This document shows positions 13,354 through 52,305 of a DNA stretch of 64,000 nucleotides, one piece after another; position 1 is the first letter of the stretch; each line of letters begins with the position of its first letter. The notes under the pieces were generated by a model, which saw only the letters and a program-made list of their open reading frames with translations, was not told where the DNA came from and did not search any database. Source of the DNA: Aureococcus anophagefferens (Eukaryota > Sar > Pelagophyceae > Pelagomonadales > Pelagomonadaceae); assembly GCF_000186865.1 (NCBI RefSeq), contig NW_008705576.1, positions 79,756 to 143,755 of the forward strand, in the 5' to 3' direction. The position numbers and the translations under genes are program-made.

Positions 13354-15467
13354 TTACCCCGCGGCCGCGGCCGCCGCCTCCGGCGCCTCGCCCGGCGCGG
13401 GCTCCGGCGCGAGCGCGGCGGCCTCGTCGTCGAGGAGCAGCCGCCCGTGGAGGGGCGTGCGGCGCTTCGCCTGGCGCCACTGGAACCAGGCGTCGGTCGG
13501 CGCGCCGCTCGACCGGCCCTCGCGGCGCGTCGCGCGCGCGAGCACGTGGCCGTCGCCCGCGGCCGCGGCGACGACGCGCCGCGACGCGAGGGGCCAGACG
13601 GGCATGGGCGCCTTGACGGGCGCGTCGCGGCCGAGCACGGCGCCCGAGCCCCAGACGTGGAGCACGCCGTCGTCGTCGAGCGCGGCCGCGAAGGTGCGGC
13701 CCGCGCCGACCCAGAGCGCGTCGCGCACCGCGTCGACCTTCCGCGGCGCGCCGGACGCGACGGCGGCCGCCCTCGCCTTCTTCGGCGTCGCCTCGGGCGC
13801 CGGCGGCGCCGACGCTCTCGTCGCCAAAGGCGAAGACGGAGCCGTCGACGGCGAGCGCGACGACGAACGACGCGCCCGCGGCGACCTGGGACACGGCGAC
13901 GGGGAGCGCGACGCGCTCGAGGCGCGGCGCGGCGCTCCGGCTCGCGGCGGCGGCGAGCCGCCGGAGGCGGTCGTCGGGCCCGTCGACGCGCGCCGCGACG
14001 GCGGCCGCGACGGCGCGCGACCGGAGCACCGCGGCGCGCGCGGCCGCCAAAGCCGCGACGGACCGCTGCATGCGCCGCAGGTCCGGCCCGCCGAGGCCGT
14101 GCGCCTTCTCCGCCCGGTGCGCCGCGAGCAGCGCGCCGCGGCGCGCGGGCGGCGGCAGCGTCGCGAGCGAACCGTCGGCCGCGTCGGACTCGAGTTTCAG
14201 CGCGACGTCCGCCGTGCGCCGCGCGCGGCGCACGGCGTCGCGGGCCGCGCGGTCCGGGTGCGCGTGGTCCTGCCAGCAGTCCGGCGGCGCCGCCGCCGCC
14301 GGCGCGTCGCCGGCCCTGGCGCGCCACGCGAAGCAGGTCCCGTCGCGCGCCGCGACGACGTTCACCGCCTGTGTGGAAATCAAATCTTCAACCCGACTGC
14401 AATGTGATCGTATGCGTTCGTTTCGACGCAAGCTCTTCCGCCGTGTTTCAAGAACTCGACGAGAGCAATCGATTCGTCCAAAAATCAGCCGAATCGACAT
14501 CGATTTGACGGAGCTAGAGAGTTCTGAAGTTTGGTGGGGACCCCCCAAACCAGTGGTTGATTTCCACACAGTTCACCGCGGCCGTCGCCGCCGCGGAGAC
14601 GACGTCGACGGTCGCGAGGGCCGCCCGCAGCCCCAGCGCGCCGGCGCCGCCGTCGAAGGCCGGCGTGCGCTTCGCCGCGAAGCCGAAGAGCCGCCGGCAC
14701 CCGTCCGCGTACTCCGCGCAGACCTCGACGCAGTCGCGCCGCGGCGACAGCGCGACGCGCGTCGGCGGGCCCGCGGGCGGCCGCGCCGCCGCGGTCGACG
14801 GCGCCTCGCCGTGGTCGGCGTCGTCGTCGAGCCAGGGCCCCTCGTCGAAGGCGGCCTCGGCCTCCGGCTCGAGCGGCGCGAGTTTGGCGGGCCGGTCGCG
14901 GAACGCCTCGCCCACGGTCGCGCCCCAGGCGTAGACGGACCCGTCGGCGCAGCCGCAGGCCGACCGGTCGCCTAGCGCGGCGACGCAGACCACGGCGCGG
15001 CCTCGCAGCGCGTCGTTCGGGGCTTTCCTCGTCCGCGAGTCGCCGAGGCCGAGCTGCCCGCGGCCGTTCGCGCCCCAGCCGTAGACCTCCGCCGTCCGCG
15101 CGCCGTCGAGGTCGCGGAACCCGGCGACGTAGGGCGGCGGCCGCGACGCCGCCGTGCCCGCGGCGAGGCGCCAGAGCGCGTCGTCGCCGACGACGCGCGC
15201 GCCGAGGCACCGGCACGCGGCGCCCAAAGCCGCCAGCGCGCCGCCGCCCAAGAAGCGCGCGAGCACGCCGAGGCCCTGGCGCGGCAGCCGCGCGAGCCAG
15301 GTCTTCGGCGGGCCCGCGTTGAGCTCCCAGGGGTCGTCCCACTCGGGGCACCGCACCGCGCCCAATAGCGACGCCTCGGAGCCGACGGACTCGCCGGAGT
15401 CGTAGCCGTCGCCGTCGCGGCGCGGCGACCTGCGGGAAAGCGCCCATGTCCCTCGCCAAAAAGCCAT
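13354..15467 (-). CDS. RCC1-repeat-like protein, interrupted by an introner-type intron
   Basis: Exon 1 (15467-14580) carries RCC1-type units such as VYGWGANGRGQLGLGD and SVYAWGA, preceded by an F-box-like leucine/tryptophan stretch (LGARVVGDDALWRLAAG). Splicing of the element at 14369-14571 joins ...ATAA to AVNVVAARDGTCFAW in frame. Exon 2 continues with RCC1-like blades (VALAVDGSVFAFGDE, AALDDDGVLHVWGSG) to TAA at 13354. A frame change occurs at about 13800-13830 in a GGCGCC-rich tract, probably an indel. RCC1 propellers serve as Ran exchange factors or as protein-interaction scaffolds; this one has no further domain to decide. The ATG at 15467 may not be the true start: a 46-nt intron (15475-15430) would fuse it in frame to the upstream Lys/Ser-rich gene. 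Confidence 0.7.
14369..14571 (-). mobile_element. Introner-type element, family A (A1), sense
   Basis: 203 bp with terminal inverted repeats ctgtgtggaaatc/gatttccacacag, flanked by an exact 8-bp duplication (GCGGTGAA on the minus strand; 14572-14579 and 14361-14368). The intron is 14579-14369: the upstream duplication gives a GC 5' splice site and the element end gives CAG. Removal restores the RCC1-like frame. The internal core gctgatttttggacga is shared with all other copies. Confidence 0.9.
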
Positions 15468-17135
15468 TTAGGGACGCCGGTCGAAAAGAGGACGCGCTCC
15501 GCCGCTTCCGCCGCTCGTAGCGGTCGCTCTCGCAGGACGCCATGACGCAGACGGGCAGCCAGCCCCCGCGGCGGAGCGCGTGGCGCGCCGGGCGGAAGCC
15601 CAGGTTCGCCGCGAGCGTCACGCGGCGGCGCACGGCCTCGCCGGCGACCTTGACGGCGCCGACGGCCGCGCGGGGCACGCCGCAGCCTGTGCCGGAAACA
15701 ACCGGTGGAATGGCCCCGTCCAGCAAAATTTCAAGCCTCTCTCTCTCGGTCGAATCGACGTCGATTCGGCTGATTTTTGGACGAGTCGCTTTCTCTCGTC
15801 GAGCTCTGCGAAAAAAAACATGTCAAAACCACATGCATATTGAAGTCGTGTTGAATATTCTCGTTTCCCGCCCGGGCCGCGGCGGGACGGCCGCGCGATG
15901 GACCACGCCTTCGAGTTGGGCCGCTTCACGAGGGCCACGACGTCGTCGTCGTCGGAGCGGGGCTCCCGCTCGGGCCGCCGCTGGTCGCACCAGCGCCGCT
16001 CGAGGCCGTCCGCGGGGCCCTCGCGCGACGGCGACCCGGCGGACGGGCTCCGGGAGCCGCGCGACCCGCCGCTCGGGCTCCGCGACTTGCGGCCCGGCGA
16101 CTTGGACTTGCGGCCCGCCGGCGGCGCCGCGGTCGCCGCGGCGGCGCGCGGGGGCTCGGTGACGCGCGCCTGCCGCGGCCGCGCGACCGGCGGCGGCGGC
16201 GGCGGCTCCTTCCGCCGCGCGCGCCGCTCGAGCGCCAGCAGCGTGCGGCCGTGCTCGTCGAGGGGCGCCGCGGCCGGCGCGTCGAGGGGCGCCAGCGGCG
16301 TCAGGACGACGCGCGTCATGCCCGCGCACGCGTCCGCCGCGCCGGCCGCCATCGTCGCGGCGCGCCGCGCGGTCCCGAACGCGAGCCACGCGGTCTCCTC
16401 GGCGACGGCCGCGGCCGTGTCGACGATGCCGTCCATGGGCGCGTAGAAGTGGCCGTCGGCCGGCGGCCGCGCGAGCACGGCGCGGCACGCCGCGCGCCGC
16501 GCGAGGTCGAAGACGCCGAGCTTGCGCCGCCGCGAGCGAAAGTGGACCGCCGGCGCGGCCTCCGCGGCGAGCATGAGGCGCACGGCCCGGGGCTGGATGC
16601 CCCGGGGCCGCCACTCCTCCTCGCTGGACGACGACGAGTCGCTGTCCGAGTCCTCGAGCCGCGCGCGGCCGCGCGTCCGCGACCGCGCGCGGTCGACGTC
16701 GCGCTTCGTGATCCGCCGCGCCGGGTCCGGCGACTTCGAGCGGCTCCGGACGCCCGCGCGCCGCCAGCGCCGCGGCCGCGCGGCGAGCTCCACGGCCGTC
16801 CAGGCGCGCGCGCGCGCGAGGGCCTTGTGGGCGCGCTTCTCGGCCTCGCGGTCGATCTCCCGCACGACCAACGCGACGCCCTCGGCCTCCGCGGACCGCC
16901 AGAGCCGCTCCTCCTTCTCCGTGATGAGCTTCTCCCGCCACTGGGCGTCGGCCAGCGCTTTTTCCGCGGCCGTCTGGGGCTTGATCATGCCCATGGACTC
17001 GAAGAACATGGTCAGCTCGTGCTCGGTCCAGGACTCCAAGGCCTCCGCGGGCACCTCCAGGCTCCCGCAGTTCTGGTAGCGCGCGCGGCACGCGTCGATC
17101 CAGCGCAGCCGCGCCGCCACGCGGGACTCGGCCAT
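15430..17135 (-). CDS. Lys/Ser-rich protein with acidic serine tract
   Basis: Exon 1 runs 17135-15884 (ATG within gccATGgtg context, 17135). The N-terminus is structured (IDACRARYQNCGSL, then ELTMFFESMGMIKPQ), followed by charged helix, RS/KS-rich stretches (RSRSKSPDPARR), an acidic serine run SDSDSSSSSEEE, and a proline/KSPGRKSRSPS tail resembling SR-related nuclear proteins. Removing the diverged family-A element at 15687-15875 joins ...RPSR to CGVPRAAVGAVKVAGE. This exon has no convincing stop of its own before running into the RCC1-like coding region. A 46-nt GT-AG intron (15475-15430) would continue it in frame into that gene, making one protein. That fusion is an inference; two separate genes with a missed terminator is the alternative. 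Family not recognised. Confidence 0.6.
15687..15875 (+). mobile_element. Introner-type element, family A (A2), antisense to its gene, diverged
   Basis: 189 bp. Left end ctgtgccggaaac and right end gtttcccgcccgg are degenerate inverted repeats, flanked by near-identical 8-mers (minus strand GCCGCGGC upstream, GCTGCGGC downstream). The core ttcggctgatttttggacga reads on the plus strand although the gene is on the minus strand, so the left end provides the CAG acceptor. The intron (15883-15687) has a GC donor. The unused end has lost AG. Confidence 0.75.
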
Positions 17136-17362
17136 GGTGTGGCTTTGCAGTGGTTACATTGCTGCGATCCCGGGTTGCCGCCGCATCACTCCATACAAAA
17201 GAAGCGCAGCCCGGTGCAATGCAAACTATGCCGTGCAATCACCAGAGATATTGACCTGAGAACGACAGAAACGCCAGCCCTGGGGTTTCATCCTTATCCG
17301 GGCCAGCTCTCCTCGCAAGAAAAGACGAGGCCCATCGCGCGCCGGCAAGGCGGTGTGCCGCC
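17136..17362. promoter_or_regulatory. Shared divergent upstream region
   Basis: A 227-bp gap separates the start codons of the Lys/Ser-rich gene (minus) and the K+ channel gene (plus), so both promoters must lie here. It is less GC-rich than its flanks. No TATA box or recognisable operator is evident. Confidence 0.4.
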
Positions 17363-20300
17363 ATGGCGTCGCCGGCGGGCTCGACGGGCGCGCCGTCGCC
17401 GAAGCTCGGCGCCAAGGAGCGCGAGGAGAAGCGGGCCCGCGAGAGCCGGGCGCGGGCCATGGCGAAGAAGATGGAGCTCAAGAAGGCCATGGAGGAGCGC
17501 AAGGAGCCCGAGAGCAACGCCGAGGCCCTCGCGGGCATGCGCGACCTCCACCCGGAGCTCAAGAACCTCGCGCGCCTCCAGGCGCAGCAGCAGCAGGTCT
17601 ACGAGGCCACGGGCGTGGGCGGCGTCGCGCGGCGGCCGAGCCTCCTGAAGCACGACAGCGTCCGCGGGTCGAACCTCCTCGGCCGCGGGTCGGCGACCAT
17701 CGTGTCGCGGTCCTCGGACCAGGCCGGCGCCGGCGGCGCGCGCGCGTCCGTGAGCGCGCGCGGCCGGAGCAGCCTCGTGCCGCGCGCGTCGCTCGCCTTC
17801 GCGCCGTCCGCGGAGCAGATCCGCGTGGCCTTCGGGGGCGCGGCGCGGCGTCCCGGGGGCGCGAGCGAGGTCCCGGCCGGAACCGCTCCGTCGTAGGCAA
17901 GGAGGCGCCGGCGGACGACGCGGCGGCGGGCGACGCGGAGGAGGCGTACGTCGCGCCCCACAGGGCGGCAAAAGAGAGCGAAATTCCCAACTTCAAAGGC
18001 TCCGATTTCGGCCGTTTTCCACTCGTTTTGGCTGATTTTTAAACGAGCGATCATCTCTCGGAACGGTCTCGAAGCGTGGATGCTTTTTATGGAACGCGCT
18101 TGCGCGGAACACTCACGTTGAAGCGATGTTGAATCACTCTTTTGCTGCCCAGGCTCCCCAGGCGTCGATCCTCGACTCGAACTACGTCGCCGTGCGGCGG
18201 CTCTGCAACCGGGACCACCCCTGGCGCAAGCGCTGGGACCTCGCGGTCATGATCGTCATCTCCCTGGACTTCCTCATGACGCCCTTCCTCGCCGCGCGCG
18301 GACCCGGCGTCGCGAGTGTCTCGCGAAGGCGACGATCGTCCCGCGCAGGTTCAACCAGCATTATTCGCGCGCGGGGCGGGGCTTCGGCGTCGCCGCGGAC
18401 CGCGACTACTTCCAGGGCCTCGTCGTCGGCTACGTCGTCGACTGTTTCCTGCTCGTCGACATGGGGCTCCAGGGCATCACGATCATCTACGACGTCCGCT
18501 GGGGCATCGTTGACACGGTCGACGAGCTCCGGCGCCGCTACGTGCGGAGCTGGCGCTTCGTCGTCGACGCGGCGGCCTGCCTGCCCTGGGAGGTCGTCGC
18601 CCTCACGCTCGGCCGCGGGCCGAACTCGCTCCTGTTTTCGCAGCTCCGCATGAGTCGCGTCGTGCGCATCTACCGCGTGCGCGAGACGCTCCAGCGCTGG
18701 GGTTTGAACATCCGCATGAACTCGAACGCCGTGGGCATCGTCAACTGCGTGTTCTTCATCGTCTTCGCGTCCCACTTCGTCGCCTGCGTCTGGTTCTGGC
18801 TCGCGTACACGTCGTCGAGCACGAAGCGCGACGTCGTCCAGCAGAGCGTCGAGTCGCTCCTGGCCTCGGAGCCGAACACGTGGCTGGACCTCGTGCTGGA
18901 CTGGCAGGACATGAAGACGAGCCTGCTCTACGTCAAGTCGCTCTACTGGACCATGAGCACGATGACGACCGTCGGCTACGGGGCCGCGAAGGGGCGCGAC
19001 GTTCCCAACTTCTCTCTCGGCCGTGTTCCACTCGTTTCGGCTGATTCTTGGACGAGGGATCGTTTCACGGAGCGTTTGCGACGCGCGGATGCCTTTTCTT
19101 TGGAACGCGCGCGCGCGGAACGCCCACGTCGAAGCGACGTCGAATCGCCCGTTCGCGGCCCAGGTCGGCTACGGCGACCTCACGCCCGTGTCCACGAAGG
19201 AGCACTGGTACGCGATCTTCGTCATGCTCTTCGGGTCCATCCTGTTCGGCTACATCTTCGGCCTCATGGCGTCGCTCGTCGCGAGCATGGACGTGACCAT
19301 GGCGGCCTTCCGCATGAAGGTCGACTCCGTGCAGCGGTTCCTCCACTACCGGAACGTGCCGCGGGAGCTGTGCGAGCGCGTGCACCGCTACCACGACAAC
19401 ACGTGGGCGCAGACGCGGGGCTTCGACGAGCACGCCATCATGTGCGACCTGCCGAGCTCCATCCACCTCGACCTGGCCCTGCACCTCTACGGCGACATGC
19501 AGGGCAGGAAAAGAGTGCGACATTCCCAACTTCAAAGGCTCCTCTCTCGGCCGTTTTCCACTCTTTTTGGCTGATTTTTGGACGAGCGATCATCTCTCGG
19601 AACGGTCTCGAAGCGTGGATGCTTTTTTCTGGAACGCGCGCGCGCGGAACACTCACGTTGAAGCGACATTGAATCTCTCTTTTCCTACCCAGGCGACATG
19701 ATCATCTCCGTGCCGCTCTTCAAGAACGCGGAGCCCGCGTTCGTGCGCGCGATCGTGCTGCGGCTGCTGCCGACGGTCTTCCCCGAGAACGAGAAGGTCG
19801 TGCTCAAGGGCGAGGTGGGCCGCGAGATGTTCTTCATCCAGCGGGGCCACTGCGAGGTCGTCAACGACGAGACGGGCGAGATGCTCGTCGAGCTCCAGGA
19901 CGGCCAGTACTTCGGCGAGGTGTCGATCTTGTGCGAGGCGCGGCGGACGGCGACGGTGCGGTCCGTCACGGAGGTCGACCTCCTCGTGCTGAACAAGCAG
20001 GACCTGGACCTCGTCTGCAGGGACTTCCCGCGGGTCGCCGCCTGTGTGGAAATCAAACAGTGGGTTATCCCGACCAAACTTCAGAACTCTCTCGCTCGGT
20101 CACATCGAAGTCGATTCGGCTGATTTTTGGACGAATCGATTGCTCTCGTCGAGTTCTCGAAGCACGGCAGAAGCGCGCGCGTCGAACCCGTCGCATACGC
20201 TCGCATTGAAGTCGGGTCGAAGATTTGATCTCCACGCAGGTCGCGGCGAAGATGAAGGACCTCGCGGACGAGCGGCGGAAGATCATCGGCGCGCGCGTCT

Positions 20301-20809
20301 GCAAGGTGCTCAACGGGAAGAAGCGCGACGACGCCGCCAAGCCGGAGACGGACGAGGAGCGGCGCCAGCGCGCGGAGAAGCGGAAGCTCGAGCAGAAATT
20401 GGAGGAGGTGTCCGCGAACACGGCCAAGTCGTCGGAGGCGCGCGAGGAGGAGCGGACGCGCATCGTCGGCCAGACCATGGTCCAGGCCTTCAAGGCGCGC
20501 CGCGCGTCGACGCTCGCGCCCGTCGAGGAGCAGAAGGCCGACGTCCAGGCGTCCGTCATGTACGCGGCGCCGAAGCCGACGCGCGTCGGCCTCGAGCGCA
20601 TGTCGTCGAAGCGCCGGCTCTCGGCCGCGGGGGGGTCCGTCCGCGCCGTCAACGTCGCCGCGCTCCGGCAGGCGCCCAAGGTCGCGCCGGACCTCGTCGT
20701 CGAGGACAGCAGCGACAGCGACAGCGGCGACGACGACGACGCGCCGCCGCCGGCGTCCCCGGGCTCGACGGGGCCGACGCCGGCGAAGCGGGACCTCGAG
20801 GAGGCGTAG
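17363..20809 (+). CDS. Cyclic-nucleotide-binding voltage-gated K+ channel (KCNH/HCN/plant-Shaker type)
   Basis: Exons: 17363-17952, 18153-18970, 19164-19491, 19693-20033, 20240-20809, separated by four introner-type introns. After a charged cytoplasmic N-terminus come S1 (WDLAVMIVISLDFL), S2 (VVGYVVDCFLLVDMGL), S3, an arginine-bearing S4 (RMSRVVRIYRVRET), S5 (VFFIVFASHFVACVWFWL), pore helix and filter MTTVGYGDLTP, S6 (FGSILFGYIFGLMASLV), a C-linker, and a cyclic-nucleotide-binding domain with YFGEVSILCEARRTATV, which keeps the FGE and R-T-A phosphate-cassette residues. A 190-residue charged tail follows. K+ selectivity and cNMP modulation follow from these motifs. The frame breaks once in exon 1 (about 17860-17900) and once after S1 (about 18300-18320); each needs one base, probably assembly indels or tiny introns. 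Confidence 0.85.
17961..18152 (+). mobile_element. Introner-type element, family B (B1)
   Basis: 192 bp, ends cagggcggcaaaag and cttttgctgcccag. Flanking 8-mers GCGCCCCA (17953-17960) and GCTCCCCA (18153-18160) differ at one base. Intron 17953-18152 (GC donor, CAG acceptor) joins ...EEAYV to APQASILDSN just before S1 of the channel. Confidence 0.88.
18979..19163 (+). mobile_element. Introner-type element, family B (B2), inside the K+ filter codons
   Basis: 185 bp with ends cggggccgcgaa/ttcgcggcccag, a diverged, GC-richer version of the family B ends. Exact duplication GTCGGCTA (18971-18978, 19164-19171) encodes V-G-Y of the selectivity filter. Intron 18971-19163 is GT-AG, phase 0; splicing gives MTT|VGYGDLTP. 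Confidence 0.92.
19500..19692 (+). mobile_element. Introner-type element, family B (B3)
   Basis: 193 bp, ends cagggcaggaaaag/cttttcctacccag, exact duplication GCGACATG (19492-19499, 19693-19700). Intron 19492-19692 uses a GC donor. Splicing joins LHLYG to DMIISVPLFKN at the C-linker/cNMP-domain boundary. Confidence 0.92.
20042..20239 (+). mobile_element. Introner-type element, family A (A3), sense
   Basis: 198 bp, ends ctgtgtggaaatc/gatctccacgcag. Flanking 8-mers GTCGCCGC (20034-20041) and GTCGCGGC (20240-20247) match at seven of eight. Intron 20034-20239 is GT-AG, phase 0, joining DFPR to VAAKMKDLADERR just after the cyclic-nucleotide-binding domain. Confidence 0.88.
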
Positions 20810-21042
20810 TCTTCTTATTTTGGGCTGTGTACCGGGGGTGATGACTGGGGGCTCGGCCTCGGGTTCGCCGATCTATGCGTCGGATAAACCCTTGCCGCAG
20901 CGCGAGGTAACACGCCACGCGCAAGCTGAGATTTCGAGTTTTCTGACTGCTCGACTCCTTATCCACTGCTCCGCGTGCACCGATTGCGACGCGCCGTCCG
21001 AGACCCACAAACCTCACACGAAATGCCTCGCCAGACGCCGGG

Positions 21043-34343: not shown

Positions 34344-34365
34344 TCGTACGTCCGATATAGCTCTC

Positions 34366-37300
34366 TTAGTGCGCGGGCGCCTCGGGCCCCGCCCCCTCGT
34401 CCCAGACCTTGGCCGGCGGCCACAGGTCCCGGCCCCGCTTGAACGCGCGGAGCTCGTCCAGGCTCCGGAGCACGACGCCGCCGGCCGGCGCGGCGTCGGC
34501 CGGCGCGTCCGCGGCGAGGTCCGGCGAGTAGACGCGGGACCGGAAGAGGCGCCGCTGCGGCGCGCCGGGGAGCACGTGCGCCTCGAGCACGCGGACGAGG
34601 TCCTCGCGCGACACGTCGCGGAGCTGCGCCGCGCGCGTCGCCACGTGGCTGAACTTGCGCCGCCCGGACGAGATCTCGTGCCAGTCCCGCGACACGACGT
34701 CGCGCAGGCTCGCGGGCCGCTGGAGGATCTCCGTCGCCAGGCCCTCGCGCTTCAGCGCCAGGTCCGCGTCGCTCAGGTCCCGGAGCTCCTGGGCGAAGAC
34801 CGCCAACCACGCCTCCACCCTGTCCTCCAGCTCGGGAGGGCTCTTGCCCGTCGCCGACTGGAGCAAACACGTAAAGCCGATGACGCCGCCCGAGCTATCG
34901 AGACCCGCCGACGCGATGTAGCCGAGCTGCTCCACCGTGCGCAGGCGGTTGAACGCGGACGCCTGCGCGAGGCGGCCGAGTAAGGTCGCCGCGGCGTCCC
35001 GCTTCGCCGCGGACGGCCAGCCCGCGTCGACGGCGTCGTCGTCGTCGCCGCTGCGGCCCAGCTGCCAGTACATCTCGACGGCGTTGTTCGGGTCCGACGG
35101 CTCCGCGGCCTTGGCGTTGGGCTCGCCCCGGAACCGCGTGCCGCTCGCCTCGCCCTCGCGGAGCGCCCGCAGCTCGACGGCGACGCCGAAGTCGCCGCGG
35201 GGGAGCCGCAGCGCGGGGTGCGGCGCCAGGGGTTCCGTGGGCTCCCCCGGGTCCGCGACGGCCGCCAGCGCCGCGGCCGCGTACGCGCGCGCGCCGGCGT
35301 CGTCGGCGTTGCCTGGGCAGCACAAGAGTGATTCAACGTCGCTTCAACGTGAGTGTTCCGCGCGCGCGCGTGACGGAAAAAGCATCCACGCTTCGAGACC
35401 GTTCCAAGAGATGATCGCTCGTCCAAAAATCAGCCAAAACGAGTGGAAAACGGCCGAGATAGGAGCCTTTGAAGTTGGGAATTTCGCTCTCTTGTGCTGC
35501 CCTGGGCGTTGCCCGCGACGTAGATCTCGAGGGACCCGTCGCGCAGCCGCGCCCGCGCGATGGCCGCGGCGACCTCCATGGTCAAGGAGTCGTCCGCCAA
35601 CGCGGCGCCCAGCGCGTCGACGTCCAGCGCGTCCGCGTCGCCGTCCATGGCGTAGCGCGACCACGTCGTCACGAGCGACGACGGCTCGTCGCGCGTCGAA
35701 TCGGAGCACCGCCGCGCGAGCTCCTCCTTCTCCGACTCGAAGAGCTTGCGCTCCGCGTCCGTGAAGTCGGACTTGGCGACGAGCTCCCGGAGCTTCGTCG
35801 CCGCGAGCTCGAGCGCGTCGCGCGCCTTGTCGGAAAATCCCGACGACCGGAGCACGAAGCCCGCGCGCGACGCGTCCACGGAGAACGACAGCCCCGCGAG
35901 CGACGCGTCGTAGGCCTCGTGGTTCATGAGCGCGAAGACCGTGTTGCCGATGGCCTTGGTCGCCGCGAGCGACCGCGCCGTGTGCTTCTCGGCCTCGCGG
36001 AAGAGCGCCGCGACCATGACCTTGGGCACCTTGGGCACCGTCGGCGGCGCGTCGGCGAGGTCCGCGCGGCGCCAGACCGTGGCCCGGCCCGTGCCCGGCA
36101 GGCGGTAGACGCCCGCGCGGTCGTCCGGGTCGTCGACGAGCGACAGGTCCCCGGCGACGTAGCGGTTCGGCTTCGGCAACGCGAGGCGGGAGTCCCCCGC
36201 GTCCGACGCGCGCGCCCAGCGCGCCAAGACGTCGTCGCCCGTGCGGTCCGACCGGTACGTCGCGCCGTGCCAGGGCTCCCGCGTCCAGCCGCCGTCCGTC
36301 GCGTGCTTGCGAGCGTCGAAGACCACGGAATTCTCCGGCGTCAGCGCGTCCAAGACGACCCGCACGGCCTCTTCGTCGAACGTGCCCGCGAGCGACGGGC
36401 CGCTCAGCGGCTGCGTGGGGTGGTCCCAGAGCGCGTCGGCCAGATCCGACGCCGTGTCCGCCGCGCTCCGCTTCTCCGCGAAGCGGAAGCGCGCGCCGTG
36501 GAGCGCCTGGAGTTCGTCGGACAGCGTCCGCAGCGCTTCCACCGGCGCGGACCGCACGGTGCCGACCCAGGCCCAGATGAGGTCCAGCACGTCGTCGACG
36601 CGCGCCTCCCCGAGCTCCGTGAGGTCCACGGAGAGTTCGAAGAGCTGCGCGTCGTCGAATTTCGCGGCCGTCCCGCAGCTCAGCGCGTCGACCCAGCCGC
36701 GGTCGCGCAGAAGCGCGTGCAGACTCTCCTCGCCCTCGTGGCCGAGCAGGTGGGACACGAAGAGCTCGGGCGTCGCGCCGCGTTCGTGCAGCGTGGACCG
36801 CGCGGGCAGCGGCCAGAGCAGCTGCAAAGAGCGCCAGTCGCGCACGGGCACGACCTTGACGACCCGCGGGACCTCCTCGCTCTCGGCGGCCCAGGGCGTG
36901 ACCCGCGGCGCCTTGGCCCGGCCCGCGCCCGACGACGGGATGGCCCCGAAGCGGCCGTCGCCGGCGACGAGCTTTTCGAGCTCGTCGAGCGACTCCCTGC
37001 CGACGACGGCCAAACGCATCTTGTCCCCCACGTAGTGCTCCGCGTTCCAGCGCTTCAGCTCGTCGTGGAGGCCCCGCTCGCCGTTCAGCGTGTCCAGCGA
37101 CCCCGTGGAGAAGCGCGAGAACGGGTGCGCGCCGTTCGCCGTCGCCTTGAGGACCGAAAGCATGCGCCAGCCGTCGTCCTGGAGCGCCATGGCGTACTCC
37201 GAATCGACGGCCTTGACCTCCCGCTCGACGCAGTCCAGACTCAGCAGCGGATCCACGAAGAACTGGGCCAGGCGGTCCAGCGCGCCGTCGAGCGCGCCCG

Positions 37301-38806: not shown

Positions 38807-40504
38807 TCAGGGGAGGTTGCCGAGCTTCGCGGCCCGTCGCTTCTGCGACGCGGCGATGGCGTCGGCGAGGGACCCGCCGCCGCCGCCGCCCGCCGGTTTC
38901 GGCGCCGGCGGCGGCGCCGCGGCCTTGGGCTTGGCCTTTTTCAGCTGCTTGCCCGCGGCGATCTGCGCCATGAGGTCCATGCCCCCCCCCGCCGCGGGCT
39001 TCGGCGCCGGCGGGGCCGTGGACTTCTTCTTCAGCTTCTTCCCCGCCTGGATCTGCGACAGCAGGTCGCCGCCGCCGCCCGCCGGCGCGGCGGCCTTCTT
39101 CGTCGGCGGCGGGATCGACACCTTCTTCGGCGCGGGCGACGCCACCGACGCGCCGAAGAGCAGCGCGGGATCCAGGCCCTCGGCGCGCATCTTCTGCTCC
39201 ACGGCGCCCTGGGGCAGGTGCATCTTGAGCATCATGTTGAATTTCTTCAGCTTCGGGTCGTCCGCGGCGCCGGGCTTGACGGCCGCGGCCGCGGGCGCCG
39301 GCGGCGCCGCGGGCGCGCCGCCGCCGCCGCCGCCGCCGCCGCCGGAGCCGCCGGAGCCGGCGCCGAAGAGGAGGGCCGGGTCGACGCCCTCGGCGCGCAT
39401 CTTCTGCTCGACGGCGCCCTGGGGCAGGTGCATCTTGAGCATCATCTCGTACTTCTTGAGCTTCGGATCGCCGCCGCTCGGCGCGGGCGGCGGCGCGGGC
39501 GCGGGCGCGGCGCGCGGCGCGGGCGGCGGCGCCGGCGCGGCGGCGACCGCGGGCGCGGCGGAAACGACCGGCGGCGGCGGCGGCGCGGCGGCCTGCTTGT
39601 GGCCGAGGTCGAGCGTCCGCTGCGACGCGGCCGTCGCCTTCGCTTTCGACGTGTTCGTGATGCACCACTGGATGGACGCGCGCCACTCGTCGAACTGGGC
39701 CTGGTCCGGCGCCCGCAGCGCGAAGCCGTCCTTCTTGGGCTTGCGCGTCTCGCCGTCGATGACGAGCTCGAGGCTAAAGTAGTACGCCTCCGCGGCGTCG
39801 GAGCCCTTGCCGTGCTTGCCCCGGAAGGTCTTCGCGCCGCCGTCGCCGAACTTCGAGAGGCCGCCCAAGAAGACGGAGCCCTTCTGCACCTTCAGCGTCT
39901 CGTCGGAGAAGTACTTGAGCTCCGAGCGCTTGAGGTCCAACACGAAGTGGCGGTACTGCCAGTTCCGCCGCCCGAAGAGGGAGCTGCCGCCGCCCTTCTT
40001 GAGCAGGACGCCCCGCGTCCGCAGGCGCGCGCCGTCTTTGGCGTCCTCGAAGCAGTCGGCCTCGGCGACGCCCGCGCCCGGGAAGTCGCCCCTCTTCGGC
40101 GGCGGCGTCGCGGCCGCGGCCGGGCTCGGCGGCTCGTCGGCGGCGGCCGCGTCCGCGGCGCCGTAGATGTCGCCGAGCTCGGGCTCCGGGTCCGCGACCT
40201 CCTCGACGCTCCAGCCCGTGGCGCCCGTGCGCGTGTTGCTGTAGTACGTGTAGCCCGAGCTCTCGTCGTAGCCGCTGACGACGCCGTCGGGCAGGCTCTC
40301 CGCGGCGCCGCCGACCTCCTCCCGGCTCCAGCCCGTCGCGCCCGTGACGGAGTTGACGTAGTAGGTGTTGCCCGCGCCGTCGTCGACGGCCTGGATCGGG
40401 TCCCCGAGGAGTTCTTCCCGGGACCAGCCGGTCTGGCCCGTGCGCTGGTTGACGTAGTACTTGTTCCCGGCGCCGTCGTCGGCCTCGACGATGTCGTCGG
40501 CCAT
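38807..40504 (-). CDS. WW-like / PH / WASHC3-like motif / WH2 actin regulator, 565 aa
   Basis: ATG 40504, single exon. Three consecutive WW-like units (GNKYYVNQRTGQTGW, GNTYYVNSVTGATGW, GYTYYSNTRTGATGW) open the protein; each keeps the YY-N-TG-W core but lacks the usual first Trp. A PH domain spans about residues 155-275 (RGVLLKKGGG ... WRASIQWC). Then two near-identical blocks, LKKYEMMLKMHLPQGAV and LKKFNMMLKMHLPQGAV, each ending in MRAEG.DPALLFG, resemble the CCDC53/WASHC3 signature. WH2 actin-binding motifs follow: DLLSQIQAGKKLKK and DLMAQIAAGKQLKK, plus a weak third (LADAIAASQKRR). Polyproline linkers separate the parts. WASP-like promotion of actin assembly at membranes is a reasonable inference. 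Confidence 0.82.
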   Translation of the reverse strand: MADDIVEADDGAGNKYYVNQRTGQTGWSREELLGDPIQAVDDGAGNTYYVNSVTGATGWSREEVGGAAESLPDGVVSGYDESSGYTYYSNTRTGATGWSVEEVADPEPELGDIYGAADAAAADEPPSPAAAATPPPKRGDFPGAGVAEADCFEDAKDGARLRTRGVLLKKGGGSSLFGRRNWQYRHFVLDLKRSELKYFSDETLKVQKGSVFLGGLSKFGDGGAKTFRGKHGKGSDAAEAYYFSLELVIDGETRKPKKDGFALRAPDQAQFDEWRASIQWCITNTSKAKATAASQRTLDLGHKQAAAPPPPPVVSAAPAVAAAPAPPPAPRAAPAPAPPPAPSGGDPKLKKYEMMLKMHLPQGAVEQKMRAEGVDPALLFGAGSGGSGGGGGGGGGAPAAPPAPAAAAVKPGAADDPKLKKFNMMLKMHLPQGAVEQKMRAEGLDPALLFGASVASPAPKKVSIPPPTKKAAAPAGGGGDLLSQIQAGKKLKKKSTAPPAPKPAAGGGMDLMAQIAAGKQLKKAKPKAAAPPPAPKPAGGGGGGSLADAIAASQKRRAAKLGNLP

Positions 40505-43934: not shown

Positions 43935-44248
43935 CTAGTTCTTGTGGAGGAGGCCGAGCTCGAAGGCGACGCGCCGGCGCTGGAGCCGCGCGGTGATGCC
44001 GATGTCCTCGAGGGTCTCGTCGAGCTCGTCGGGGGAGAGCGTCGCGAGGAAGGCGCCGTCGCAGCCGCCGTCGACGATCGCGGCCTCGTACTGCGCGAAG
44101 TTGGGCGCGATGCTCGAGACGCGCGCGGCGACGCCCGCGGGATCGAGCGTGATGAGCGCCGCGTGGATCTGGTTCGTGCGCGGCGCGGCGACGGGCGCCG
44201 GCGGCGGCGGCGGCGGGGGCGCGGCGACGGGCGCCGCGGCGGCCGGCA

Positions 44249-44294
<46 letters not shown>

Positions 44295-44334
44295 GGACGC
44301 CGCGGGCGCCGCGGGCGGCCGGGGCGCGGCGACG

Positions 44335-44366
<32 letters not shown>

Positions 44367-45291: not shown

Positions 45292-45373
45292 CGTGCGGTT
45301 CTTCACGACCTCGCAAGACCTTCAAGCCATCGACGAGAAACGTCGGCTCATATCCGCCCGTGTTGCACCAGGT

Positions 45374-47035: not shown

Positions 47036-47219
47036 AAATGCGGGCGAGTCGTGTGTAGACGCGCGCGCAGATGTTGCCAGCACGGTCGGGGAATTCCGAC
47101 TGGCCGGAGGCGTCGGCGAGTACTATCGACCTCTATCGGAGGTACGTAGTGCGGCGCCGAGTCGCCAAAGGCAATTTTTTGCGCCGCAGGCGCGACCCGG
47201 GCGCTGGGCCCCGCGCGAT

Positions 47220-48038
47220 ATGGTCCTCTCCTCCGCCGCCTTTATCGCAGCGTTCGATGGTGATTTCCAAGGCGTCGTTGCCGCGCTTGACACGGGCACG
47301 AACGTCAATGACAGAACAGCGCCGGCGAGCGAAGACGATCCGACTTATGATAGAATGCTCGTGGTCGCGGCCCGTTTCAAACACTACGAAATAATGCGTC
47401 TTCTGCTTGAACGAGGCGCGGACCCGAACCTCCCTGATTGCGAATATTTGTGTAACACGCCTCTGATGCTAGCCGGCGACGAGCGCGCGATCGACCTGCT
47501 CGTCGCGTATGGCGCCGACGTTAATTACGCGTCAAGAACAAACGTCGAATTCGAGGATGGCCTAGGCAAGACAGCGCTCATGAGCCAAGCCGAAATGCAC
47601 CGCCTCGGATGTGTACGCGCTTTACTCAGACACGGAGCCTCGTTAAGTCTTCGCGCAGATAATGGTCGGACTGCGCTCGAGACTGTACAACGCGTGCAAC
47701 GTTATATGATTCATACGCATGATTTGAGAACGAGAGAAAAATATCAAGATGTCATCGACCTGCTCACGGCCGTCGAAACCAGCGGGTCGTGGAAGAAGTA
47801 CGTGCGGGAGCCCGTCGTCTCGCTCCTCTCGCTGCGCTACCTTTGCCTCGCCGGCCGCGCGACGCCGCCGCCGCATCTCTTGCGCTGCTTTGGATCGCCA
47901 CTGATCGCGAACGCCGACAAGGCGCGAACACGCTCACGACGCCTCGCGAGCAGCGCCGCGCGAACATCGCTCCCCGACGAGGTCTTCGAGCACATCCTGA
48001 CCTTCTGGAACTTCGCGCCGCGAATCGCGGGAACCTGA
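47220..48038 (+). CDS. Ankyrin-repeat protein, 272 aa, with conserved C-terminal WxxY...LPDEVFEHIL tail
   Basis: ATG 47220. Three to four ankyrin repeats: FDGDFQGVVAALDTG, KHYEIMRLLLERGADPN, TPLMLAGDERAIDLLVAYGAD, GKTALMSQAEMHRLGCVRAL. The C-terminal part reads SGSWKKYVREPVVSLLSLRY, then ALPDEVFEHILTFWN-like LPDEVFEHILTFWN, an F-box-like ending I associate with an expanded ankyrin family in stramenopile algae. Base composition changes inside the gene: the first 540 bp are AT-richer with codons like tta, aaa, cgt, whereas from about 47765 it is typical GC-rich host sequence. Role may be substrate adaptor for ubiquitination; inference only. Confidence 0.75.
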   Translation: MVLSSAAFIAAFDGDFQGVVAALDTGTNVNDRTAPASEDDPTYDRMLVVAARFKHYEIMRLLLERGADPNLPDCEYLCNTPLMLAGDERAIDLLVAYGADVNYASRTNVEFEDGLGKTALMSQAEMHRLGCVRALLRHGASLSLRADNGRTALETVQRVQRYMIHTHDLRTREKYQDVIDLLTAVETSGSWKKYVREPVVSLLSLRYLCLAGRATPPPHLLRCFGSPLIANADKARTRSRRLASSAARTSLPDEVFEHILTFWNFAPRIAGT

Positions 48039-48056
48039 ATGCCCAGTAGTAGCGCC

Positions 48057-49875
48057 CTAGGTCGTTAGCTCTGCCCACCGCGGCCAGACCGCCGCCGCGG
48101 CGCAACCCGCGCCGCGGCACGCGAAGAGCTCCGCGAGGGCACCGTGCAACGCGGCTCGGCGCGCGGGCGTCGCGGCGCCGTAGGCGTTGCGCTGCTGGTA
48201 GGGGTCGTCCCCCAAGTCGTAGAGCTCGTAAAATTGAAGCTCCGTGGCGTTCCACGTCCACGAATTGTCGTATTCGACGTACGCCAGGTCCTCGTCCTCG
48301 GTGAGAACCCGGAGCATGCGCCAGCTGTTGGAGTGCGTCGAATCGACGATGTAGCAGTCGCCGTCGCCGACCTGGGCAGCAAAAGGGTGATTCAACGTCG
48401 CTTCAACGTGAGTGTTCCGCGCCCGCGCGTTCCGGATAGAGCATCCACGCTTCGAGACCGTTCCGAGAGATGATCGCTCGTCCAAAAATCAGCCAAAACG
48501 AGTGGAAAGCGGCCGAGATATGAGCCTTTGAAGTTGGGAATTTCGCACCCTTTTGCTGCCCTGTCGCCGACGCCCTCCGACTCGACGCATTCTGTCGTGT
48601 TCGCGCCGTCCGGACCGCGCGGGATGGGCCCGCACCTCGCGTCGCTGCTCCAGATCGACGTATGGTCGAAATAGTAGGTGCCGACGCTCATGTACTCCAC
48701 GATGAACGCGCCCCGGCCTGCGGGGCCGTCGCCGCCGAGGAGCCGCGACGCGAAGGAGCTGCCGTCGACGTCCTCTGGAATCGCGAGCCCCGCGAGGTCC
48801 AAGACCGTCGGCAACAGGTCGACGTTCCCCACGAGGTCCGGCAGCGTCGAGCCCGGCGCGATGCCCGGCCCGCGGACGATGAAGGGGATGCGCACGTCCG
48901 TTTCGTAGGGATGAGTTTTGCTCGTCGTCTGCCGCCACTGGCCGAACTTGTAGCCGTGGTCCGACGTGTAGACGATGTAGGTGTCGTCCAAAACGCCCAT
49001 CGCCTCGAGCTTGTGGTAGAGGCTGAACACCAGGTCGTCGACGCTCAGCAGCGACGCCCAGCGATCGCGGAAATGTTGCGACTGCCAGCACTTGACGCGG
49101 TCGTCGATGGGCGGCGTCTGGCGGACGTGCTGGACCTTGTCCTCGTGGCTACAGTTGTAGTTCGGGGTTTCGGGTATGCCCACGTCGTCGAAGGCGTGCG
49201 CGTACCAGGGCGCGGGCGTCGCCGGGAAGTGGGGCGCGTGCGGGCCCACGTAGGCGAAGAACGGGCCCGTGTGCGCCCGTCGAGCCAGCGCAGCGTCCGG
49301 TTGCCGATCTGGGATGTCTGGTACACAGTACCGAACACCGGCGCCGTCTCGTTGAGGAGCTCTTCGTAGGGTTCCGAGCCCGCTTCGTAGCGGAAGTATT
49401 TCAGCCCGTCGTAGTCGTTGTACTGCGACGGGCTGTCGACGTAGGCCGCGGACCGCGCCGCGGCGATGCGCCGCAGGATATCCGGCTGGTCGTTCGTGAC
49501 CTTGCCGAAGATGCCGACGTCGTAGCCCGCCGCGGAGAGGAGCCCGAAGAGGCCCGCGTCCGCGCGCTCCACGAACGACGTGTCCACGTGCATGCACGCG
49601 CCGCCCGGCGTGCCGAGGTTGTGGTACATGCGGCCCGTCAGGAACTCCGTGCGCGACGGGCAGCAGATGGGCGTGTTGACGAAGGCGTTCGTGAGCAGCG
49701 CGCCCTCGTCGACGAGGAGCTTCTGGGTCTGGGGCATGATCTCGAGGCTGCCCATTGAAGTGTAGTCGCTGCTCCGCCCGAGGCGCGTGTCCTGGTCGTC
49801 CGTGAGGATGAACAGGACGTTCGGCTTCGCCGCGGCGCCGACGAGGAGCAGCGCGAAGGGCACGAACATCATCAT
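48057..49875 (-). CDS. Sulfatase, N-acetylglucosamine-6-sulfatase-like
   Basis: Exon 1 49875-48572, exon 2 48371-48057. Signal peptide MMMFVPFALLLVGAAA, then KPNVLFILTDDQD with metal aspartates and the formylglycine site NTPICCPSRTEFLTG (C-x-P-S-R). Downstream GPFFAYVGPHAPH and YTSDHGYKFGQ carry further active-site residues. CCPSR and the overall length fit GNS-type enzymes acting on sulfated glycans, but substrate is not fixed. The family B element at 48372-48563 splits the C-terminus; splicing gives VESEG|VGDGDCYIV. One frame change at about 49275-49285 (LDGRT to HTGPFF) needs one base, probably an indel. An upstream in-frame ATG at 49920 would lengthen the leader and lies in a duplicated 45-bp block. 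Confidence 0.82.
48372..48563 (-). mobile_element. Introner-type element, family B (B5)
   Basis: 192 bp in sense with the sulfatase gene. Exact 8-bp duplication GTCGGCGA on the minus strand (48564-48571, 48364-48371). Intron 48571-48372 is GT-AG, phase 0. Ends cagggcagcaaaag/cttttgctgcccag. Confidence 0.93.
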
Positions 49876-49950
49876 GCTGCTCCTACAATTTAAGACGAGC
49901 GAGAAGGGCACGAACATCATAAGCTGCTCCCCTGCACCTTGAGACGATGC
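49855..49950. repeat. Tandem duplication of about 46 bp over the sulfatase start
   Basis: 49855-49900 and 49903-49950 are diverged direct copies (gaagggcacgaacatcat then ctgctcc and agacga). Because the block contains the start codon, the sulfatase has two candidate ATG clusters, each followed by FVPF. The gap to the divergent HDAC-like gene is only 115 bp, so promoter elements were probably duplicated too. Confidence 0.7.
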
Positions 49951-49990
49951 AGTAATCTTGCCGTAGATGGTGAAGGAGAGCCCGTGAGCT

Positions 49991-52305
49991 ATGACGGCAT
50001 CAATCCCTCAAATGGCGATCAGCCTCGCGCTGCTGCTCGCGGCAACCCATGCGCTCGCACCCTCGCAACCACCGGTCACGCTCCACTACACGCCGAAGCA
50101 CCGCTTGCACCGGAACCGCCGCGGCCACCCGGAACACCCCGGCCGCCTCGACGAGTTCATCCTCCCCACGGCGCGAAATCTCGGCGACGCCGTCGCCTGG
50201 CGCGAACTCGGCGCGCCGCGGAGCGACGCGTTGGACGCCGTGCTGCGCGTGCACGACGGCGACCACGTGGCGCGCGTCGAGCGCGCGTCCGCGCGGCGCT
50301 TCGGTCGCGCGCGGCTCGGGCCGGACACGTTCGTGAACCGGCGATCGCACGAGGCCTTCCTCTGCGGCGTGAGCCTCTGGCTCGACGCCGTCGACGGCGC
50401 GCTGAACCGGTCGTCGGGCGTCGAGTTCGCCCTGAGCCGGCCGCCGGGCCACCACGCGGGCCGCGCCTCGGCGGACGGCTTCTGCGTCTACAATTACTGC
50501 GCGGCCGCCGCGGCGCACGCGCTCGACGTACATAAATGCGACTGGGTCGCGATCCTCGACTGGGACGCGCACCACGGCAACGGCGTCGCGGCCTACGCCG
50601 ACGAGGACCCAAGAATTTGCTACGCGTCGGTCCACCAGGCGCCGCTCTGGCCGAACACGGGCGACGACGCCAGCGACCGCGGCTTCCACGGGAACCGGTT
50701 GAGCGCGCCCGTGGCCCGCGGCGCCGGGCCGGCGGCCTTCGAGGCGGCGTGGCGGTCCTGCGTCGACTTCTGCGAAGCGTTCGCGGAGAAGAGGGGCGGC
50801 AAAGGCCTCGTGATCGTCTGCGCGGGCTTCGACGCGTTGGAGGACGATCCCCTGGTCCAGTGCCGCCTGGGCGTCGACGACTTCGCGCCCCTCATGGAGG
50901 CCGTGCTCGACTGGCAGCCAACCGTCGTCGCCGGCCTCGAGGGCGGCTACTGCGCGGCCATGGGGCCCGCGCTGCGCGCGGCGCTCGACCCGGCGCTCGG
51001 CGGCGACCTCGCCGCGCGCGTGCTCGCGGCGCGCGCGCCGGACGGCGGGAGCGACGACGGCGGGCGGGTCGCGCTGTGCTCGGAAGCGAACCTGCCGCCG
51101 CGGGGCGGCCTGAAGCGGTGCGAGGGCGTCGTCGTCTGCGTCGACGCCGACGGCGCGCCGCGCGCCGTCGCCGCGCGCCTGCCGCCGCTCGGGCTGCCCA
51201 CCTCGGGCTTCGGCGACTTCGACCCGAACGTGCGCACGCTCCGGGACCGCGCCACGGGCACGAAGTTCTACGTCGACAGCGGCGACGTCCGCGGGCCCTG
51301 GTGCCCCGAGTGGGCCTTCGGGCGCCGGGGCGGCGACAAGCCGGGCCGGCCGAAGCTCTCGACCGTGGCCCGCAAGGCCGCGTCCTGGGTCCTCTACCGC
51401 CGGGCGCGCCGGGACCGCCGGACGCTGGCGACGGCGCGCATCGAGGTCGTCGACGGCGCCGCGACGGTGTCCCGCGCCGAGTACGACGCGCTGGTCGCCG
51501 CGGCCGCGAAGACGTCGATCCCGACGCGCAAGCGGCTCCGGCGGCTCGTGCTCGCCGGCGCGATCTCCCAGGGGAACTTCGACGCGTTGGCGGCGTCGGG
51601 CGCGGCGACGATCACGACGGCCTACGACGCGAGCGCCGGCACCGTGCGGTCGAGCTGCGTCACTTCCGGCGGCTTCGAGCTCGGCTCCTACCTCGTCCGC
51701 CTCTCCGGCGAGCCGACGCCCGGCACGGACGCCGTCATCGCCCAGCTCCTCCACGGCGGCGACTTCGCCCGGGTGAAGCGGTCCGCCGACGGCTTCGCGA
51801 AGATCGCCGCGGGCGTCGCGGTCTTCGTGGAGCCGGCGGCGCGCGGCCGGAACCTGGGGGTCGTGCTCTTCAAGGAGGCCATGCGCGCGTGCCGCGCGCT
51901 GGGCTTCGACTACATGCTCTTCATCGAGCAGGACACGGGCAGCGGGCGGCTCGTGGCGTGGTACGAGAGCATCGGCTTCGTCGTCGTGCCGTCGGAGGCG
52001 ATCCCGGGCTTGGACCAGGGCAGCAAAAGAGAGCGAAATTCCCAACTTCAAAGGCTCCGATCTCGGCCGTTTTCCACTCGTTTCGGCTGATTTTTGGACG
52101 AGCGATCATCTCTCGGGACGGTCTCGCAGCGTGGATGCTTTTGTCGGAACGCGCGCGCGCGGAACGCTCACGTTGAAGCGACGTTGAATCACCCTTGTGC
52201 TGCCCAGGCTTGGACCGCGCGATGGTCGGCCCCCTGCCGGACGACGCGGCCTACTACGACGCGGACCGCGAGGACGCGATCCGCGTCGTTCAGTTCGAAA
52301 GGTAA
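49991..52305 (+). CDS. Secretory/plastid-type leader - histone deacetylase domain - GNAT acetyltransferase fusion, 704 aa
   Basis: Exon 1 49991-52007, exon 2 52208-52305. Leader MAISLALLLAATHALAPS looks like a signal peptide followed by a plastid-type A-x-AP site. Residues about 30-340 are an arginase-fold deacetylase: RPPGHHAGRA (His dyad), WVAILDWDAHHGNG (zinc Asp/His), YASVHQAP, GFDALEDDPL, and GLEGGYC (catalytic Tyr), so class II/acetylpolyamine-amidohydrolase chemistry should be intact. After a middle region, about residues 590-680 resemble GNAT: VAVFVEPAARGRNLG with the R-G-x-x-L-G acetyl-CoA loop, KEAMRACRALGFDYML, and YESIGFVVVP. The enzyme may remove and add acyl groups; the leader argues against a nuclear histone role. 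Splicing of the element restores AIPGLDRAMVG. Confidence 0.85.
52016..52207 (+). mobile_element. Introner-type element, family B (B6)
   Basis: 192 bp, ends cagggcagcaaaag/cttgtgctgcccag, exact duplication GCTTGGAC (52008-52015, 52208-52215). Intron 52008-52207 uses a GC donor and phase 1. It lies near the 3' end of the HDAC-GNAT gene. Confidence 0.93.

What the first reader, a model, noticed from the sequence alone, without database searches (positions are those of the whole stretch)
14369..52207. Ten introner-type DNA elements that are exactly spliceable introns
Ten copies share the core gctgatttttggacga (one base varies in some copies) and lie in six gene loci. Each has terminal inverted repeats and an 8-bp flanking duplication (exact in seven of the ten, 6-7 of 8 in the others). 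The duplication starts with GT or GC and acts as 5' splice site; the element end gives CAG. Removing duplication plus element rejoins the exons in every case. This matches the DNA-transposon introner mechanism reported for Aureococcus and Micromonas, with enough copies in 38 kb to compare.
Basis: partly seen in the sequence, partly recalled or inferred. Interest (0 to 1): 0.85.

Follow-up and report, generated by a model that had tools for sequence, protein, structure and literature searches.

The report
Transposon-made introns in brown-tide alga
These ten repeats are short mobile DNA pieces in the brown-tide alga Aureococcus that become removable introns when they land in genes, a phenomenon already described in this species, although some details found here (a one-base switch that marks the splicing strand, and a scarcity of copies outside genes) are worth following up.

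Summary
Ten elements (six A-type, 185-193 bp; four B-type, 189-203 bp) have inverted ends and 8-bp duplications; six duplications are exact, not seven. Two copies (15687, 27487) are spliced on the strand opposite to the core.

The organism is Aureococcus anophagefferens, where Huff 2016 described such introners. That paper was not held; I rely on papers citing it. The class is already known.

Exact excision leaves the coding frame intact in 48 of 49 testable copies, against 0 of 49 with both duplications kept and 4 of 49 with the element retained. Homologues support five of ten window junctions.

Possibly new:
(1) Family A's two ends differ at the penultimate base in 42 of 42 sampled copies; that base marks the splicing strand, and the interior occurs in both orientations behind it.
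(2) Of 833 A copies with exact ends and core, 0 lack an acceptor, and 571 of 571 forward copies are followed by G.
(3) A and B share an interior but have unrelated ends.
(4) 1 of 65 copies lacks coding signal on both sides, 15 on one side.

No autonomous partner was found.

The parts
14369..14571 (-). B element, 203 bp; duplication GCGGTGAA (exact); intron 14369-14579 on minus strand, GC..CAG
   Evidence: both flanks coding in one frame after excision; RCC1-like gene
15687..15875 (+). B element, 189 bp (core on plus strand), spliced on the MINUS strand; duplication 7/8; intron 15687-15883, GC..CAG
   Evidence: second-ranked boundary solution, chosen by hand; codon signal weak
17961..18152 (+). 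A element, 192 bp; duplication 7/8; intron 17953-18152, GC..CAG; first introner of the K+-channel gene
   Evidence: open frame only, codon model gave no consistent frame
18979..19163 (+). A element, 185 bp; duplication GTCGGCTA (exact); intron 18971-19163, GT..CAG; splits the selectivity filter TT|VGYG of the channel
   Evidence: gap-free against Chrysophaeum taylorii P0003 and A. anophagefferens P0004
19500..19692 (+). A element, 193 bp; duplication GCGACATG (exact); intron 19492-19692, GC..CAG
   Evidence: gap-free against P0003
20042..20239 (+). B element, 198 bp; duplication 7/8; intron 20034-20239, GT..CAG
   Evidence: gap-free against P0003
27487..27689 (+). B element, 203 bp (core on plus strand), spliced on the MINUS strand; duplication 6/8; intron 27487-27697, GT..CAG
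   Evidence: P0046-P0049 align without a gap next to the junction
35313..35504 (-). A element, 192 bp; duplication GCAACGCC (exact); intron 35313-35512, GC..CAG; M16 (insulin-degrading-enzyme-like) gene
   Evidence: Pfam and PDB relatives of the spliced protein, whose printed PDB alignment does not cover the junction
48372..48563 (-). A element, 192 bp; duplication GTCGGCGA (exact); intron 48372-48571, GT..CAG; sulfatase gene
   Evidence: junction VESEG|VGDGDC without a gap within 3 residues in 73 of 111 covering homologues
52016..52207 (+). A element, 192 bp; duplication GCTTGGAC (exact); intron 52008-52207, GC..CAG; histone-deacetylase/acetyltransferase-like gene
   Evidence: same frame but strong codon signal on one side only
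17260..20809 (+). cyclic-nucleotide-gated K+-channel gene holding four introners (outer limits approximate); at least one further, ordinary intron probably lies between the first and second introner, because the open frame changes there
   Evidence: Ion_trans 6.4e-22, cNMP_binding 5.6e-16

Best explanation
The ten elements are introners of Aureococcus anophagefferens: short non-autonomous DNA transposons (MITEs). A transposase supplied in trans makes an 8-bp staggered cut and inserts the element (inferred). The target duplication starts with GY, and its upstream copy becomes the 5' splice site (GC or GT). The element's outer end supplies CAG, the 3' splice site. The spliceosome removes duplication plus element and restores the coding frame (supported by frame and homology, not by RNA). 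Family B carries CAG on both strands and is used in either orientation. Family A carries it at one end only, marked by the penultimate base of the inverted repeat. Its interior lies in either orientation behind that end, most simply through recombination between the two inverted repeats (inferred). Copies that do not splice are lost, or are not made.
For: Duplications and inverted ends. The 8 bases differ from site to site and match the downstream exon: exact in 48 of 64, 7/8 in 9, 6/8 in 6, 4/8 in 1.

Frame test on 65 copies: 49 have both flanks coding on one strand. Of these, 48 of 49 are in frame after exact excision, 0 of 49 if both duplications are kept, 4 of 49 if the element is retained. 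Removing 200 random bases at control points left 31 in frame and 1112 out of frame. In all 48 the coding strand has GY..AG: A+ 24/24 along the core, A- 11/11 against it, B 8 along and 5 against; 4 of the 48 (all B) have GY..AG on both strands and say nothing about the strand.

Homologues span five window junctions. Donors are GC in 40 and GT in 24 of 64; phases 16/16/16.

Genome-wide: 833 A copies with exact ends and core, 0 without an acceptor, 571 A+ followed by G and 0 followed by A, C or T. The two ends covary at positions 9 and 11 (38/42, 36/42 against shuffled means of 20.5 and 21.2). They differ at position 2 in 42 of 42 copies tallied without sorting by end letters.
Against: No RNA was available. 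No transposase was found: PF05699, PF18758, PF10551 and PF12762 gave 0, and no control genome rang for the first two. Two end-plus-foreign-interior patterns gave 1 match (a plain B copy) and 0; each would miss many true partners.

One of 65 copies (L026) has no GY..AG and needs other splice sites. Sixteen of 65 copies could not be tested by frame. Of 111 sulfatase homologues covering the junction, 38 have a gap within 3 residues of it and 4 have five or more extra residues near it.
Confidence: 0.95

Rival explanations
1. The copies spread by RNA: excised introns were reverse-spliced into other transcripts and copied back into DNA, which would explain why most lie in coding sequence on the sense strand.
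For: 64 of 65 copies have GY..AG in at least one orientation, and 1 of 65 has neither flank coding, against 9.5% of 2539 control points.
Against: Reverse splicing carries the intron's own first bases. Here the first 8 intron bases differ between copies and match the downstream exon, which needs a staggered cut in DNA. The two inverted ends covary.
Confidence: 0.02
2. Insertion is random and selection removes whatever cannot be spliced; nothing else is needed to explain where copies lie.
For: The strand agreement (48 of 48, of which 44 are informative) and the conserved first two duplication bases (1 mismatch in positions 1-2 against 24 in positions 3-8 over 64 copies) show selection for splicing.
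Against: Non-coding copies should survive unselected. By my estimate only about a tenth (A) to a fifth (B) of random coding insertions would have GY in the right direction, while control points have no coding signal on either side in 9.5% and on one side only in 33%. A large share of survivors should then be non-coding. Observed: neither side coding in 1 of 65 and one side only in 15 of 65, and 0 of 571 A+ copies followed by a base other than G. If the target is not itself G-biased, that bounds copies at unselected sites below about 1%. The control is not a genome annotation, so this is strong but not final.
Confidence: 0.15
3. Insertion itself is directed to transcribed coding DNA or to G-starting 8-bp targets, and selection then fixes the strand. 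This refines the best explanation rather than opposing it.
For: The scarcity of copies without coding signal and 571 of 571 G. PMC9860276 reports gene and nucleosome-linker bias for introners (passages).
Against: Target preference alone cannot explain the strand agreement, because a transposase is not known to read the coding strand; the GY rule is also what splicing selection would give.
Confidence: 0.55
4. The shared sequences are ordinary introns spread by gene duplication or descent.
For: None found; some genes hold several copies (window 17953-20239; L068).
Against: The host genes are unrelated (channel, M16 peptidase, sulfatase, deacetylase), and the copies carry inverted ends and site-specific duplications.
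Confidence: 0.01

Closest known systems
Aureococcus anophagefferens introner elements (Huff, Zilberman and Roy 2016, doi 10.1038/nature20110)
   Same: Same species; introners with direct repeats and inverted ends of constant length (PMC7789003, passages), length near 210 bp (PMC9481584, passages), insertion in both orientations with co-opted splice sites (PMC10228655, passage). The paper itself was not held; 'one splice site carried, the other co-opted from the duplicated target' is recalled from its abstract.
   Different: I could not check whether it reports the penultimate-base polarity of family A, the shared interior of A and B, or the absence of acceptor-less copies.
Aureococcus sp. introner family 4 (Gozashti et al. 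2022, PMC9860276 Fig. 2F legend; passages)
   Same: 8-bp duplication in the same genus.
   Different: That family carries both splice sites and adds 12 bp to the transcript; here splicing is exact and the 5' site comes from the duplication.
Symbiodinium microadriaticum introners (PMC9860276 Fig. 2B legend; passages)
   Same: Inverted ends, element carries the 3' site, duplication gives the 5' site.
   Different: 4-bp duplication.
Amoebophrya introners (PMC7789003; passages)
   Same: Direct and inverted repeats at intron ends.
   Different: 3-5 nt direct repeats and non-canonical splice sites; here 64 of 65 copies are GY..AG.
hAT-type MITEs
   Same: 8-bp duplication; the donor-side end of family A reads CAGGG (hAT end consensus and duplication length recalled, no call).
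   Different: No hAT transposase detected (uninformative); family B ends CTGTG and the acceptor end of A reads CTGGG.

Membership tests
Introner (intron-generating transposable element) | Many near-identical introns at unrelated gene positions | tested here: met
   2136 exact core copies; mean identity to consensus A+ 0.943 (n=31), A- 0.960 (n=11), B 0.863 (n=22); unrelated host genes
Introner (intron-generating transposable element) | Excision at GY..AG restores the reading frame | tested here: met
   48 of 49 testable copies in frame; five window junctions supported by homologues
Introner (intron-generating transposable element) | Splicing shown in RNA | not testable with these tools
   no RNA-seq available
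Introner (intron-generating transposable element) | Insertion between nucleosomes | not tested
   no nucleosome data used
DNA-transposon (MITE) introner of A. anophagefferens | Inverted ends and 8-bp target duplication | tested here: met
DNA-transposon (MITE) introner of A. anophagefferens | One splice site in the element end, the other in the duplication | tested here: met
   64 of 65 copies GY(duplication)..CAG(element)
DNA-transposon (MITE) introner of A. anophagefferens | Host is A. anophagefferens | tested here: met
   P0004 AURANDRAFT_29384 and P0001, P0002 are near-identical outside mis-modelled exons
hAT superfamily | 8-bp target duplication | tested here: met
hAT superfamily | hAT transposase with matching ends in the genome | tested here: inconclusive
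   PF05699 gave 0, but no control genome rang
Reverse-spliced (RNA-based) introner | No site-specific duplication | tested here: not met
   8-bp duplications match the downstream exon, 48 of 64 exact

The most novel reading that the evidence does not exclude
In family A the splicing strand is marked by one asymmetric base pair at the outer edge of otherwise matched inverted repeats, and the interior has repeatedly flipped behind it by recombination between the repeats. The pool of intact copies consists of splice-competent polar forms (0 acceptor-less of 833; 571 of 571 forward copies followed by G) with very few copies away from coding sequence. Propagation would then be tied to spliceable sites in genes beyond plain post-insertion selection. 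The core shared by A and B, used in both RNA orientations, would be a DNA-level transposition signal rather than a splicing signal, carried by two unrelated end pairs.
Probability: 0.3. Interest if true: 0.65.

Novelty: already known. Interest (0 to 1): 0.42.

Why it matters
The class is known in this very species, so the finding itself is a confirmation. Three consequences are useful.

First, the excess of GC-AG introns in A. anophagefferens (39.6%), called an enigma in 2011 (PMC3033335, passages), would follow from donors copied out of GC-rich targets: 40 of 64 here.

Second, public protein models mis-handle these introns. P0001, P0002 and P0004 each carry introner-derived or missing residues at one or more of the four channel junctions, including inside the K+ selectivity filter in P0001 and P0002.

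Third, the scarcity of free copies and the one-base polarity make a sharp test of whether introners are merely tolerated in genes or are targeted to them.

Tried and rejected
Reverse splicing was rejected because the first 8 intron bases match the downstream exon at each site.

The core as an RNA splicing signal is unlikely: A-, and B in part, are spliced with the core in antisense. The core is better conserved than the rest in copies not fetched by it. My first tally (35 copies) wrongly included four baited copies. Corrected: 31 copies, of which those of 150 bp or more give A 0.957 against 0.877 (n=13) and B 0.928 against 0.804 (n=13). It is not the best-conserved stretch: 11 of 177 (A) and 29 of 188 (B) 16-base windows score higher.

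A viral source was checked: 9 exact core hits in viral contigs, GC 0.38-0.60, with only short matches around the core. I take these as chance.

Autonomous partner: four transposase families and two end patterns, nothing.

An early idea that A+ and A- each gained an acceptor from an acceptor-less ancestor found no support: 0 such copies. Of 11 two-acceptor matches, about six are genuine by my reading; five are forward copies read 5 bases off. The tree of 55 A copies is weak (6 of 52 inner branches starred) but its starred branches force at least 3 label changes for A-. Repeated interior flips remain an inference; paired point mutations are not excluded. Bases 15-18 of the ends fit only in part: the left/right pair AGAG/GGTG occurs in 2 of 7 A+ and 1 of 3 A- copies of the GC haplotype.

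The sorting into A+ and A- used the end letters, so the 0 of 42 could have been by construction. A tally without that sorting gave the same (24 CAG..CAG, 11 CTG..CTG, 6 CGG..CAG, 1 CCG..CAG, 0 two-acceptor; 5 two-acceptor copies occur only among loci L058-L070, most of which were fetched for that pattern).

Dropped rows: 6 of 71 core hits with unclear ends (the seventh 'odd' hit, window 15687, was kept by hand) before the 65-copy count. Sixteen of 65 had no usable signal on both flanks. Of the 9 homologues, 3 do not reach the junction and 2 are A. anophagefferens models that differ there.

The codon model was trained on four genes of this window, so window copies in those genes are not independent of it; copies elsewhere are.
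Full report
Check of the observation. The core GCTGATTTTTGGACGA occurs ten times in the window with at most two mismatches, against a shuffled mean of 0.15; an eleventh match with three mismatches at 56760 shows no element by eye. A search for inverted ends plus an 8-bp repeat gave the element boundaries as the top-ranked solution in nine of ten cases; for 15687 I took the second-ranked one. Six elements belong to type A (185-193 bp) and four to type B (189-203 bp). In splice direction each of the ten reads GC or GT at the start of the duplication and CAG at the end of the element. Copies 15687 and 27487 do so only on the strand opposite to the core.

Organism. The spliced channel gene gives Aureococcus anophagefferens proteins among its best hits, near-identical to the window outside mis-modelled exons. 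The assembly is 49.05 Mb in 86 contigs and has 2136 exact cores. Of 31 copies not fetched by the core, 12 have it exact, and 7 of the 10 window copies do, so the two families together may number roughly three to five and a half thousand copies; that is a crude extrapolation.

Splicing in the window. The introner at 18971-19163 splits the selectivity filter of a cyclic-nucleotide-gated K+ channel. Exact removal gives TTVGYGDLTP, as in the Chrysophaeum taylorii relative P0003, which also aligns without a gap across the junctions at 19492 and 20034. The opposite-strand B intron at 27487 is supported by P0046-P0049, four of the nine homologues returned: the alignments have no gap next to the junction, the nearest lying 7 residues away in P0047. 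The sulfatase junction at 48372 is gap-free within three residues in 73 of 111 covering homologues out of 120 examined, including the eight best shown. The printed alignment to an M16 relative in the PDB does not cover the junction at 35313. Junctions 14369 and 35313 have clear coding signal in one frame on both sides; 52008 and 15687 are weaker; 17953 has an open frame only.

Splicing in a genome sample. I fetched copies listed first on contig 1 and trained a codon model on 2753 codons of four Pfam-supported window genes. Of 71 core hits, 65 were used (six with unclear ends dropped). Both flanks code on one strand in 49. Exact excision of one duplication plus element leaves 48 of 49 in frame; keeping both duplications, 0 of 49; retaining the element, 4 of 49. 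In all 48 the coding strand has GY..AG; four of these, all B, have it on both strands and are uninformative. The single frame exception, L026, has no GY..AG and would need other splice sites; a frame-restoring alternative exists. Donors are GC in 40 and GT in 24 of 64, and phases are even, 16 each.

Polarity of family A. In 42 A copies, TIR positions 9 and 11 vary but match between the two ends (38 and 36 of 42; shuffled means 20.5 and 21.2), while position 2 does not match in any. Because the sorting used end letters, I repeated the tally without it on the loci not fetched for end patterns: 24 CAG..CAG, 11 CTG..CTG, 6 CGG..CAG and 1 CCG..CAG, with no two-acceptor and no acceptor-less copy. 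The acceptor end carries T and the other end A, G or C. In core-forward copies (A+) the acceptor is the right end; in A- it is the left end. A- occurs in three TIR haplotypes (CA 6, GC 3, GA 2). Starred branches of the tree force at least three changes of the A- label, on a weak backbone. Genome-wide, 833 A copies have exact ends and core: 571 are A+ followed by G, 0 are A+ followed by A, C or T, 0 lack an acceptor and 11 match the two-acceptor pattern, about six of them genuine; the remainder, about 250, are A-. If each swap went through a two-acceptor stage, such copies might be expected to be common. Recombination between the matched ends, turning the interior round, is the simplest account, but it is inferred, and the bases next to the ends fit it only in part.

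Families A and B. Outside the core, the left and right interiors of the A and B consensus align above mononucleotide shuffles (z 4.7 and 6.0), whereas the outer 20 bases do not (z -1.3 and -0.1). The same interior thus carries two unrelated end pairs. Because the interior is spliced in both orientations, its conserved core is more likely to act in DNA than in RNA (inference).

Where copies lie. One of 65 copies has no coding signal on either side and 15 have it on one side only, against 9.5% and 33% of 2539 control points. Selection for splicing keeps about a tenth (A) to a fifth (B) of coding insertions by my estimate (GY at the site, right strand) but should leave non-coding ones alone, so many free copies are expected. 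An HMM scan of 214 kb found only five further, degraded copies (seven rows, two of them repeats of L006 in L007). Either insertion is directed to genes or non-coding copies are lost; I favour directed insertion plus selection, without proof. The control is drawn from the same loci and window and is not a genome annotation.

Known and new. Citing papers state that A. anophagefferens introners have direct repeats and inverted ends of constant length (PMC7789003, passages), a length near 210 bp (PMC9481584, passages) and insertion in both orientations (PMC10228655, passage). PMC9860276 (passages) describes gene and linker bias and the method of a search for mobilizing elements; its supplement was not seen. 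I could not read Huff 2016. The literature searches covered open-licence papers only and none asked for the polarity or the shared interior as such, so I do not claim that these are unpublished.

Verdict. A correct finding of a known phenomenon in its known host, with some sharper quantitative features that deserve a check against the original paper.

Noticed in passing
P0001, P0002, P0004 against window 17953-20239: Public A. anophagefferens models of this channel keep introner sequence as protein or skip exons at one or more introner junctions; P0002 starts inside an introner.
   Followed up: partly
window 18971-19163: An introner sits inside the TTVGYG selectivity filter of the K+ channel, where inexact splicing would alter the pore.
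   Followed up: yes
window 27803-27870, minus strand: A probable short ordinary intron (about 60 nt, ending CCTAG) lies just upstream of the opposite-strand introner at 27487.
   Followed up: partly
window 1580-7630 and 3100-4620: A 2017-aa open frame over GC-rich 33/66/99-bp tandem repeats with strong AT skew and no Pfam match; gene or not is unclear.
   Followed up: no
window 39150-39538: A 210-bp tandem repeat, 1.8 copies, 83% matches.
   Followed up: no
window 26559-26643: Three copies of a 28-bp repeat, 94% matches.
   Followed up: no
L026 around 1492: The one copy of 65 without GY..AG (duplication CGCGCACC); it lies against the gene's direction and could use a GT one base into the duplication and an AG inside the element.
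   Followed up: partly
L068: Three B-type matches within about 1.5 kb of one another.
   Followed up: no
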